Positions 48,665 to 55,581 of a stretch of 64,000 nucleotides of DNA are shown piece by piece. A model generated the notes under the pieces. It was not told the origin of the DNA, made no database searches, and worked only from the letters and a program-made list of their open reading frames with translations. The DNA is from Pilaira anomala (lineage: Eukaryota; Mucoromycota; Mucoromycetes; Mucorales; Mucoraceae). The stretch covers positions 558,001 through 622,000 of the forward strand of contig JAIXMQ010000007.1 of assembly GCA_025716855.1 (NCBI GenBank), read 5' to 3'. Position 1 is the first letter of the stretch, and every line of letters starts with the position of its first letter. The position numbers and the translations under genes were made by a program.

Positions 48665-49573
48665 TGCTGCTGACCCAAGAATTATTGAACCTGAAGGAGA
48701 ATTAACAGTGGCAACCAAAAATTTAGTATCTGACTTTCATTACAAGTATCCTACTGCTACCATAGATCAGTTGATGGGTGAGATGAATAACAGCTTTGAG
48801 GACCTAACCATTTCGAAAAGAACGCTCTACCATCACATGGCTGACTTATAGATTTTCACCCTTAAGAAGGCCCAATTGGAGCCGGTAGAAAGAAACACTC
48901 CAGAAAGAATCCAAGCGAGAAATCAATGGGCAGAATGGTGAAAGAGATTGGTGTTGACTATATGAATAACAGTGTTTTTATCGATAAGTTAGGATTTAAT
49001 GCAAACCTGAGAAGAACTCAAGGTTAAGCGCCAAAAGGGGAGGCTGCCAAAGTCAAAGTACTTACGGCTAGAGCCAATTCAATTTCCATCTTGGGCGCCA
49101 TTTCTGCTAGAGGCTTGATTAAAATCAGCTTGAGAAAGCCCATGCCTTCTTCAAAGAAAAGAAAGCTAGCCGGTGGCAGAAAGCAGCAAACAAAGGGTAC
49201 GGTAACCAATCACTATTATGTCAATTTTATTAAAGACGTTCTTGCTAAGATGGACAAATTTCCTGAAATGAAGGGACATTATCTAATTATGGACAATGCG
49301 CCCATACATGCAGGTAAAATAATTGGCGAGATGATCAAAGAGCGTGGCTACAAATGCATTTGCCTACCACCTTACTCTCCAGAACTCAACCCAATAGAAC
49401 AATTTTGGTCTGTTGTTAAAAGTAGTGTAAAAAGAAAATTTATGCTCAAAAAAGATACTACTCCTCGAATAATTGCAGACGCTATCAACCAAGTTGCTCA
49501 ATCATCTTTTGAAGGGTTTGCGCGCTATTCTACTAGACGTTTTGATGACTGCCTTGCAAGCCGTCCTATTTAA
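48665..49573 (+). pseudogene. Tc1/mariner (IS630-like) transposase relic
   Basis: The N-terminal part reads TATIDQLMGEMNNSFEDLTI then SKRTLYHHMADL, a helix-turn-helix type region. It is followed by KKAQLEPVERNTPERIQARN, then the first catalytic Asp context NNSVFIDKLGFNANLRRTQG, the second GHYLIMDNAPIHAGKIIGEM, and the third LPPYSPELNPIEQFWSVVKS. These three give the DDE triad of the superfamily. Stops occur after MADL, after AEW and after RRTQG, and one frame change lies around 48940. Only the last 160 codons (from 49091) remain open. It is non-autonomous now. Confidence 0.85.
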
Positions 49574-53143: not shown

Positions 53144-53335
53144 GAATAATAAAAATAAATGGATTTTTTTACATGATTTTCTCTCTCTCTCTATTTGATA
53201 AATATATGTATTTTTTTTTTTTTGTATGTCTACCACTTTCAAACAAAAATCTTGAAGCTAATGTTAAAATAAAAGTCAAGAACAGCTATAAGCATTTTGC
53301 TGCTTTTTCATAAGCCATTATAAATGCCCCTACAC

Positions 53336-53391
53336 GGGTACGGCTTACTTTTTGCTTTTGCAGTCACGGGTACGGGTACGGGTACGGGTAC
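53336..53391 (+). promoter_or_regulatory. GGGTAC tandem array upstream of the first module gene
   Basis: Four perfect head-to-tail GGGTAC units at 53368-53391, preceded by a single unit at 53336-53341. Both the single unit and the array continue into the same flank, GGCTTA. The array ends 24 bases before the ATG at 53416. A mirror array stands before the convergent paralogue. Function as a promoter or leader element is inference. Confidence 0.7.
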
Positions 53392-53415
53392 GGCTTATTC
53401 AGTTGTTGAATCTTT

Positions 53416-54456
53416 ATGAGTTTACCTACGAAATTAAAGCCTGGAAAAGATCTAATGGCCAAAGAAGCCCTAAGAGATCCTAAAGTCATAAATCTCATCA
53501 CTGAATCTCTGGTAAAAACAACAGACGATTATTTCATTGGAAACTGCGAATGGAAAGACGGTACACGCTCTGACATGGTTCTTGAGCCGAAGAACGCTCT
53601 CTCAGATCTTCCTCCTCTAATCGTGGAAATTCAGCATACGATTAACAAAGCATTCATGAAAAGAGCTGTTAGCTTTTGCTTACAAGCGTTTGCAAGATAC
53701 CATAAAGATCCTATAATATTGATAATTTGCGTAGAGAAGCTTAATCAAGATAATATACATGTGAAACTAAGCAAGCTCCCAGGTGCCTTCTCATACTTTT
53801 CAGAACCATGGGCCGAACACTGCTATATTATTTCTAAAGAAAGTACCAAAGATAATCTGTCGATCCCCCTGCACCCATTAGTTGCACTTGGTTCTTTTTT
53901 TACAAACCGTAGTCTCTCATTAGCAGACCATCCATTCAAAAATGATCCAACGGTTCAATATTTATACACCTCAGCAATATTGCAACATCAAATTAGCGTC
54001 ATTAACAAAGATATTCCGCTTTCATTTATGGATTTTCAACTTATGGAGTATGATAAATTATTGACACTCGCACATTCACTTGGTCAACCACAGTTGGGAG
54101 AAGCCGTAAATGATGCAAAGACAAGAACTCTGACGATGAAAAGGGGATATGAAGAAGTATTTATTACTGAATCTTCATTAAATAAAAAAAAAACGAGTGT
54201 CCCACCACCAACAACATCCACACCCACCACCGCAGCTGACAGGAACGATAGCAAGTTTGAAAAAGCCATGAAATTTGTCGCTGAATTTAAACAAAAGAAA
54301 GAGGAGAAAGAGGAAACAATGGATTGGGTCGCTTGTTTGAAAGAAGGAAAGGACTTGAATATATTAAAGTATAAAAATTCTGAATCATTACGCCAACAAT
54401 TCATCAAGTATACCAAAAGAAAGTCCAAGCAAACAAATTCTGATAATTCAAATTAA
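53416..54456 (+). CDS. PD-(D/E)XK nuclease-like protein, intact copy
   Basis: Single exon, 346 residues. The core shows the nuclease-like order: CEWKDGTRSDMVLEPK (Asp), then LPPLIVEIQHTINKAFMKRA (E-x-Q) and a following alpha-beta unit (CLQAFARYHKDPIILIICVE). This resembles the D...E-x-Q form in Rpn/PDDEXK_2-type putative nucleases, although that assignment is by eye. Further conserved blocks are FSEPWAEHCYIIS and HPLVALGSFFTN. The C-terminus after residue 250 is a Pro/Thr linker (VPPPTTSTPTTAADRND) and a charged helical tail (EFKQKKEEKEETMDWVACLK) ending in basic residues. It is convergent to a diverged paralogue at 54930-55506 and lies between the 3' ends of PMR1 and KAP123. It may act on DNA or RNA; unproven. 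Confidence 0.65.
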   Translation: MSLPTKLKPGKDLMAKEALRDPKVINLITESLVKTTDDYFIGNCEWKDGTRSDMVLEPKNALSDLPPLIVEIQHTINKAFMKRAVSFCLQAFARYHKDPIILIICVEKLNQDNIHVKLSKLPGAFSYFSEPWAEHCYIISKESTKDNLSIPLHPLVALGSFFTNRSLSLADHPFKNDPTVQYLYTSAILQHQISVINKDIPLSFMDFQLMEYDKLLTLAHSLGQPQLGEAVNDAKTRTLTMKRGYEEVFITESSLNKKKTSVPPPTTSTPTTAADRNDSKFEKAMKFVAEFKQKKEEKEETMDWVACLKEGKDLNILKYKNSESLRQQFIKYTKRKSKQTNSDNSN

Positions 54457-54929
54457 ATAAACAACTTTAATATTGAACACCTATTTTTATCAAATTATCT
54501 TTCTTTTCATTTCCGTATTTTTTTAAAACCCTGTTGAATACAGAACTTAGGGCCAATGTTTTAGTAATTGATAAAGGAATCATGGATCAGATATTTGACA
54601 TTTAAACTTTACTGTTGAATTAGTAATTATGATTTATGAGTCATTATGTGCTTGTTAGTTGATGTGTATTTTATGAATTATATTTTATATGTGTAGATTG
54701 TTATATTATGTTGAGTAGAAGTAAAATGTCTATTAAGTAACGTCAGATCGCGGCAAGTCTATAACTGATGAGCGGCACTCAAGAAGGACCAATTTGGATA
54801 AAGAAAGTAAATATCCATAAAATAATAAAAGGCTCAGAAACTAATAAGCTTGCGTTCATATTTAAACGCAAAACCGTTTAATGATAGGCAGGTTTAAATC
54901 TAATTGTGGGTGAACTTAACTATTATTTA
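54457..54929. other. Spacer between the two convergent paralogues
   Basis: About 470 bases of AT-rich DNA between the stop codons of the two module genes. No coding frame seen; it holds both 3' UTRs. Confidence 0.5.
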
Positions 54930-55506
54930 CTAATTTTTGATTATATCCCTCATAATGGGATTGCCAATATATCGCAGCTTTTGTTTCTGCATTTCATCAT
55001 CTGAAAAATAGATCGCAAATACTACCAACGGGTCAAGTTTGTTTGATTCGTCTTCACTAAGGTTAATTGCATTTTTGAGGATAATTAGGTACTTTTCCGC
55101 CCACACAGTACTCTCGAACATCTGTCTATGAGAATTTTCCAAAGTGGGTGATAGCAGTGATCTTACTGACGAGGAGATCTTATCAGTACAAAGAATAACA
55201 AGCGAAGGCTGAATGTCAAAGCGGTAGAATATCTCCAAGCATTTTTCAACTGATTTTTTCATCGAAATTTTTGTAATTTTTGACTGAATCTCCAAAAGGA
55301 TTGAACGTGATTGAGCCATATAAAGAACAAAATAAGAACCATTACCCAAAAATTCTAATTGAACAAAACTGAAATTAGGACAATCCTTTTTTATAATGGA
55401 TTCAGCAAGCAATTTAATAAATGCAGGGCTTTGTAAAATTTTATAACTAAAGAGTTATCAGTAAAGTATTCAAATTGGCTTTACAGGTTTACCTACTTTC
55501 ACTCAT
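54930..55506 (-). CDS. PD-(D/E)XK nuclease-like paralogue, shorter and with the Asp lost
   Basis: Two exons, 55506..55493 and 55446..54930 (46-nt intron, phase 2), giving about 176 residues starting MSESSYKILQSPAFIKLLAE. It aligns along its length with the 53416 gene: SRSILLEIQSKITKISMKKS against PPLIVEIQHTINKAFMKRA, FESTVWAEKYLIIL against FSEPWAEHCYIIS, and DPLVVFAIYFSD against HPLVALGSFFTN. The E-x-Q is kept, but the upstream Asp is replaced (GNGSYFVLYM where the other has GTRSDMVLEP), so a nuclease centre is unlikely. It lacks the Pro/Thr linker and charged tail. The frame is intact, which suggests retained function or recent loss. An inverted GGGTAC array stands 50 bases upstream of its ATG. 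Confidence 0.55.
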
Positions 55507-55556
55507 TGTAATCAAAACTGAAGAGTAAAATAAACTGTCTTTGTCGAACTGCAACC

Positions 55557-55581
55557 GTACCCGTACCCCGTACCCGTACCC
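55557..55581 (-). promoter_or_regulatory. GGGTAC tandem array upstream of the paralogue
   Basis: Four GGGTAC units on the minus strand (GTACCC on the plus), with one extra base between the middle two, ending about 50 bases before the ATG at 55506. It mirrors the array at 53368-53391, so the two arrays form a long-distance inverted pair around the module. Confidence 0.7.

What the first reader, a model, noticed from the sequence alone, without database searches (positions are those of the whole stretch)
53336..55581. Two convergent nuclease-like paralogues framed by inverted 4x GGGTAC arrays
A self-contained 2.2-kb block between the convergent 3' ends of two housekeeping genes (PMR1 and KAP123) holds two diverged paralogues facing each other. 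Each has exactly four tandem GGGTAC units directly upstream, reading in its own direction (24 and 50 bases before the ATG). The paralogues have a D...E-x-Q core like PD-(D/E)XK proteins. The layout could be a small mobile or selfish module, or a lineage-specific gene family with its own shared control element. I know of no described system with this arrangement.
Basis: partly seen in the sequence, partly recalled or inferred. Interest (0 to 1): 0.82.

Follow-up and report, generated by a model that had tools for sequence, protein, structure and literature searches.

The report
Two-gene mobile element with hexamer-array ends
In a mould genome, a 2.2-kb block of two facing nuclease-like genes turns out to be one copy of a transposon-like element whose inverted ends carry short tandem DNA repeats; related gene pairs recur elsewhere in the same genome and relatives of both proteins in related moulds, while the way it moves is still open.

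Summary

GGGTACGGGTAC occurs at 4 places in 34.25 Mb. Three are copies of this block (98-99% DNA identity); the fourth is a solo 64-bp piece of its end. The flanks compared share no homology, so the arrays mark the element's ends. They belong to a terminal inverted repeat: a 25-bp block plus array stands at the long-gene end here and, inverted, at the short-gene end of the C172 copy.

A diverged convergent pair on C112 has arrays inside inverted repeats of about 200 bp; another, on C35, lies within TACAGTYGTTCC ends, close to those of Tc1-like transposons here. Gene models of three other species appear to read through similar arrays.

The long protein is predicted PD-(D/E)XK-like. Best reading: a transposon-like element carrying a nuclease-like gene and an active-site-deficient partner. 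Its mobiliser is unproven; Tc1-like help is favoured.

The parts
53333..53397 (+). left terminal repeat: GGGTAC unit (53336-53341), 25-bp block (53343-53367), (GGGTAC)4 (53368-53391)
   Evidence: sequence; 64-bp 100% copy at C182; 25-bp block found at 3 places genome-wide with up to 3 mismatches
53416..54456 (+). long gene, 346 aa, PD-(D/E)XK-like (D53, E71, Q73) with a helical C-terminal half
   Evidence: ORF; 85 matches in own genome, itself included; family in Mucorales; AF2 pLDDT 88.3; fold comparison; motif conservation
54930..55506 (-). short gene, about 170-176 aa: exon 55506-55493, intron 55492-55447, exon 55446-54930 (one possible model); active-site D replaced by Y, E-x-Q kept
   Evidence: splice model; public model P0068 = BD770DRAFT_407629; relatives
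55557..55581 (-). right terminal array: 2 GGGTAC + extra G + 2 GGGTAC, reading into the short gene; the 25-bp block is absent here

Best explanation
The block is one copy of a TIR-type DNA transposon-like element of Mucorales. Its ends are inverted repeats containing a hexamer array; the two genes converge because each is read inward from one end. Shown: several copies, unrelated flanks, homology ending at the arrays, diverged pairs inside inverted repeats. Inferred from peptides only: similar arrays beside the family in other species. Inferred: the arrays serve as promoter and as binding sites for the mobilising protein; the long protein is a PD-(D/E)XK nuclease; the short one is a catalytically dead paralogue that modulates it (inhibitor or targeting partner); movement is by a Tc1-like transposase acting in trans or formerly encoded in cis.
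For: Three copies plus one end fragment account for every GGGTACGGGTAC match in the genome. No homology at E 1e-3 among seven 3-kb flanks. The same 25-bp block plus array stands at the long-gene end (window) and inverted at the short-gene end (C172). C112 pair: 97-bp (100%) and 108-bp (96%) inverted repeats with an array at their inner end before each gene. C35 pair inside TACAGTCGTTCCGATAC / TACAGTTGTTCCGATAC, outer ends 1,981 bp apart. C68 member inside a 42-bp TIR beginning TACAGTGCTTCC; the same 12 bases bracket a DDE_3 ORF on C42. C161: TACAGTCGTTCC end, arrays, a broken Tc1-like transposase gene, then a convergent family gene. TACAGTSSTTCC sites within 3 kb of family clusters: 9 observed, 0.87 expected, at 7 of 52 clusters. 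Tc1-like transposase homology beside 6 of 27 family loci examined, of 52 clusters. 6 of 7 short-type genes have a long-type gene converging on them; these are 4 independent pairs, as three are the GGGTAC copies. Apparent read-through arrays: Thamnidium P0069, Rhizopus microsporus P0074, Mucor saturninus P0067, unnamed P0005.
Against: No target-site duplication is proven; outer ends differ between copies, unlike precise transposase-cut ends, and the window's own right end lacks the 25-bp block. The GGGTAC copies lack TACAGT ends. Listed DDE_3 hits (150 of 197) lie near only 4 of 52 clusters against 1.56 expected, weak; 2 of the 6 transposase-flanked loci, C196 and C160:500k, are copies of each other. 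Of the 7 clusters near TACAGTSSTTCC, the C1:868k sites both lie to one side of the family match, and the C203 and C182:600k sites were not inspected. Many members are solitary or differently arranged. The pattern TWCGNKx3 is not commoner than its reversed control (20 against 32 matches); only its placement is informative. No insertion polymorphism, empty site or expression data could be seen.
Confidence: 0.72

Rival explanations
1. Host gene pair with a shared regulatory array, duplicated a few times by segmental duplication; the arrays are binding sites of a host transcription factor and not transposon ends.
For: Arrays lie 24 and 50 bases before the ATGs; other family members also have hexamer-like arrays upstream (C147 and C112 members); some long ORFs without internal stops stand alone.
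Against: The flanks compared share nothing beyond the block; homology limits coincide with the arrays; a solo end fragment exists on C182; paralogous pairs lie inside TIRs; 28 of the 85 matches contain stops (my count).
Confidence: 0.15
2. Toxin-antidote style selfish pair: the long protein is a damaging nuclease, the short one its inhibitor, which penalises loss of the element (functional analogy with bacterial RpnL/RpnS).
For: The short protein lacks the D in 9 of 9 but keeps E-x-Q in 10 of 10 aligned sequences that cover the places; in Benjaminiella it is closer to ours (82%) than the long one (63%); Rpn precedent (abstract and first paragraphs of PMC10327210).
Against: Most family clusters have no detected short partner; the broken C112 short copy, left out of the alignment, has G for the E; RpnS is a C-terminal piece of the same gene, whereas here the short gene is a separate paralogue of the N-terminal domain; no functional data.
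Confidence: 0.25
3. The long protein itself is the recombinase of an autonomous element, cutting at its array ends, and Tc1-like parts nearby are nested neighbours.
For: The GGGTAC element has no other large ORF; arrays differ between subfamilies; transposase remnants lie at a minority of loci (6 of 27).
Against: TACAGT ends at C35 and C68 resemble or equal those of Tc1-like elements of the same genome; outer ends are imprecise.
Confidence: 0.12

Closest known systems
Non-autonomous Tc1/mariner (IS630) elements
   Same: TACAGT-type ends at C35, C68 and C161, Tc1-like transposase homology beside some members, small size
   Different: carries two convergent PD-(D/E)XK-like genes and hexamer arrays; the GGGTAC copies have neither TACAGT ends nor a transposase
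Transposons with subterminal repeats (hAT elements such as Ac/Ds; Kat1) and Mutator-like elements with long TIRs
   Same: short repeated motifs just inside the ends; TIRs holding promoters and transposase binding sites are stated for Mutator elements (starts of the abstracts of PMC4763223, PMC3260210, PMC3310237 in the listing; the Ac hexamer is recalled)
   Different: no hAT or Mutator transposase was seen in the element, though none was searched for by profile; here the repeats form one tight tandem array; function not tested
Rpn (recombination-promoting nuclease, PF04754 / PDDEXK_2) of bacteria
   Same: PD-(D/E)XK-type proteins in several copies, horizontally moved, with long and short products (abstracts of PMC5350276 and PMC10327210)
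   Different: no Pfam match for the window's long protein; fungal; the short partner is a separate convergent paralogue

Membership tests
TIR-type (class II) DNA transposon | copies at several sites with unrelated flanks | tested here: met
   3 copies + 1 end fragment; no homology among 7 flanks (the C172 long side is lost, and one C182 flank is partly N)
TIR-type (class II) DNA transposon | inverted repeats at both ends | tested here: met
   arrays inverted at both ends of the window copy; 25-bp block plus array at opposite ends of window and C172 copies; about 200 bp at the C112 pair
TIR-type (class II) DNA transposon | target-site duplication | tested here: inconclusive
   TA stands next to several outer ends, but ends are uneven and the arrays contain TA themselves
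Tc1/mariner | DDE/D transposase in the element | tested here: not met
   absent from the window block; a broken one sits in the C161 relative
Tc1/mariner | TACAGT-type ends as in Tc1-like elements of this genome | tested here: not met
   not in the GGGTAC copies; present at C35, C68 and one side of C161
PD-(D/E)XK superfamily (long protein) | alpha-beta-beta-beta-alpha-beta core | tested here: inconclusive
PD-(D/E)XK superfamily (long protein) | conserved D ... E-x-K/Q | tested here: met
   D53 45 of 49, E71 48 of 52, Q73 47 of 52 ungapped rows of 61
PD-(D/E)XK superfamily (short protein) | catalytic D | tested here: not met
   Y or W in 9 of 9 covering short-type rows, C178 included
Rpn / PDDEXK_2 | Pfam model match | tested here: inconclusive
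   window long protein 0 Pfam families up to E 10; 2 of 61 relatives reach PDDEXK_2, best E 0.047; genome search silent, but so were the controls

The most novel reading that the evidence does not exclude
A eukaryotic transposon whose own mobility enzyme is a PD-(D/E)XK nuclease working as an active/inactive paralogue pair on hexamer arrays in its ends, with array sequence and protein co-diverging among subfamilies.
Probability: 0.12. Interest if true: 0.85.

Novelty: new variant of a known kind. Interest (0 to 1): 0.55.

Why it matters
It would add an undescribed family of small mobile elements in Mucorales, with a nuclease-like gene and a conserved partner that has lost the catalytic D. Because the ends are compact and repeated, the roles of array, nuclease and partner can be tested directly with short DNAs and two small proteins. 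It also explains a recurring class of uncharacterised Mucorales gene models, some of which seem to carry translated array sequence.

Tried and rejected

Not in print: the titles and abstract starts listed by searches show no paper on this element or family; only open-licence papers are held, so this is weak. Papers: abstract, first paragraphs and outline of PMC10327210; abstract and outline of PMC5350276; passages of PMC4905642; all others only as search listings.

Full report
Observation. The block is as described, with corrections. On the left, a GGGTAC unit (53336-53341), a 25-bp block (53343-53367) and (GGGTAC)4 (53368-53391) precede the ATG at 53416 by 24 bases. On the right, two pairs of units separated by an extra G (55557-55581) precede the minus-strand ATG at 55506 by 50 bases. 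Five matches to GGGTACGGGTAC in the window stand against 0 in each of 100 shuffles. The long ORF is open at 346 aa. The short one needs a small intron; my model and the public protein (BD770DRAFT_407629, P0068) differ slightly. The two are paralogues, 28% over 151 aa, E 1e-12. Flanking domains fit PMR1 and KAP123; orthology was not tested.

Organism. Contig lengths 979433 and 771846 in public Pilaira anomala records (P0058, P0068) equal those of contigs C112 and C193 of this genome, so the window is from P. anomala, Mucorales.

Mobile block. GGGTACGGGTAC has 14 overlapping matches at 4 loci of the 34.25-Mb genome; the reversed control has 1. C1 and C172 hold copies of both genes at 98-99% DNA identity in their main stretches; C182 holds only 64 bp of the left end at 100%. 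Seven 3-kb flanks from the four loci show no mutual homology at E 1e-3; the long-gene side of C172 is lost and part of one C182 flank is N. At the short-gene side of all three copies, and at the long-gene side of the two that have one, homology stops in or just outside the array. The other two copies are damaged: C172 lacks the 5' part of its long gene and a piece of its short gene; C1 has 1.58 kb of foreign sequence in place of part of the long gene and a small deletion near the start of the short one.

Arrays are inside terminal inverted repeats. The 25-bp block was found at three places, allowing 3 mismatches: at the long-gene end in the window, in the C182 fragment, and at the short-gene end of C172; the stretch shared between long end (window) and short end (C172) is 51 bp at 96%. 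C1 keeps only the inner part of the block, and the window's right end none of it. A diverged convergent pair on C112 shows the same plan on a larger scale: a 97-bp (100%) and a 108-bp (96%) inverted repeat, interrupted on one side by other DNA, with GTTTCG-type arrays at the inner end before each gene. This accounts simply for 'each array reads in its own gene's direction'.

Link to Tc1-like transposons. The C35 pair lies between TACAGTCGTTCCGATAC and its inverted near-copy, outer ends 1,981 bp apart. The C68 member lies in 42-bp inverted repeats beginning TACAGTGCTTCC. On C42 the same 12 bases bracket a 370-aa open frame with DDE_3. On C161 a TACAGTCGTTCC end is followed by (CGGTTA)3 and GGTAC x5 arrays, a broken Tc1-like transposase gene and, converging on it, a family gene; no such end was found on the other side. 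Genome-wide TACAGTSSTTCC has 83 sites against 9 for the reversed control; 9 of the 83 lie within 3 kb of 7 of the 52 family clusters, 0.87 sites expected. Of these, the two C1:868k sites lie to one side of the family match, and those at C203 and C182:600k were not inspected. Transposase homology flanks 6 of the 27 family loci for which I held DNA (of 52 clusters), two of the six being copies of each other; listed DDE_3 hits (150 of 197) lie near 4 of 52, 1.56 expected, which is weak. TE-rich neighbourhoods could inflate these counts. The GGGTAC copies themselves have neither TACAGT ends nor a transposase.

Arrays in relatives. TWCGNK x3 has 20 matches at 16 sites, fewer than its reversed control (32 matches, places not seen), but 6 of the 16 sites lie within 3 kb of a family cluster, 0.17 expected; four of the six belong to the GGGTAC copies, the others are C147 and C161. 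Other species' proteins seem to contain read-through of such arrays before the family's start: Thamnidium elegans short gene (YGYGYGYGY, fitting TAYGGN units), R. microsporus short gene (HPKFAYFIGHGLGLGL), M. saturninus long gene (HPKIAYFIGHGHG), and an unnamed metagenome long gene (GHGFGHGHGF). A near-identical peptide before a SHORT gene in one species and a LONG gene in another fits one inverted terminal repeat; the DNA was not seen.

Mechanism. Shown: copies, inverted ends, recurrence of the pair. Inferred: promoter and binding role of arrays, nuclease activity, dead-partner regulation, mobilisation by Tc1-like transposase. Uneven outer ends and the lack of a proven target duplication are the main weakness.

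Noticed in passing
window 49142-49573: Fragment of a Tc1-like DDE_3 transposase (143-aa ORF, E 1.5e-19) just upstream of the PMR1-like gene.
   Followed up: partly
L074 (G000:C53:22200-25600): Near-perfect 1.48-kb palindrome (98.5%) with two diverged long-family genes facing each other; C152 has a similarly spaced pair.
   Followed up: partly
L031 and L032 (C160:313k and C160:234k): Two copies 79 kb apart (98.6%), each with a 436-437-bp inverted repeat containing family fragments.
   Followed up: no
L052 (C1, inside long gene) and L053 (C172, next to long gene break): The same foreign sequence abuts the broken long gene in both decayed copies, at different positions.
   Followed up: no
P0044, Mucor circinelloides HMPREF1544_05396: Gene model joining a Tc1-like DDE_3 part to the family domain; fusion or annotation artefact unknown.
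   Followed up: no
L054 4201-4321 (C182): Tc1-like transposase remnant about 540 bp from the solo array fragment, with an N run on the other side.
   Followed up: no
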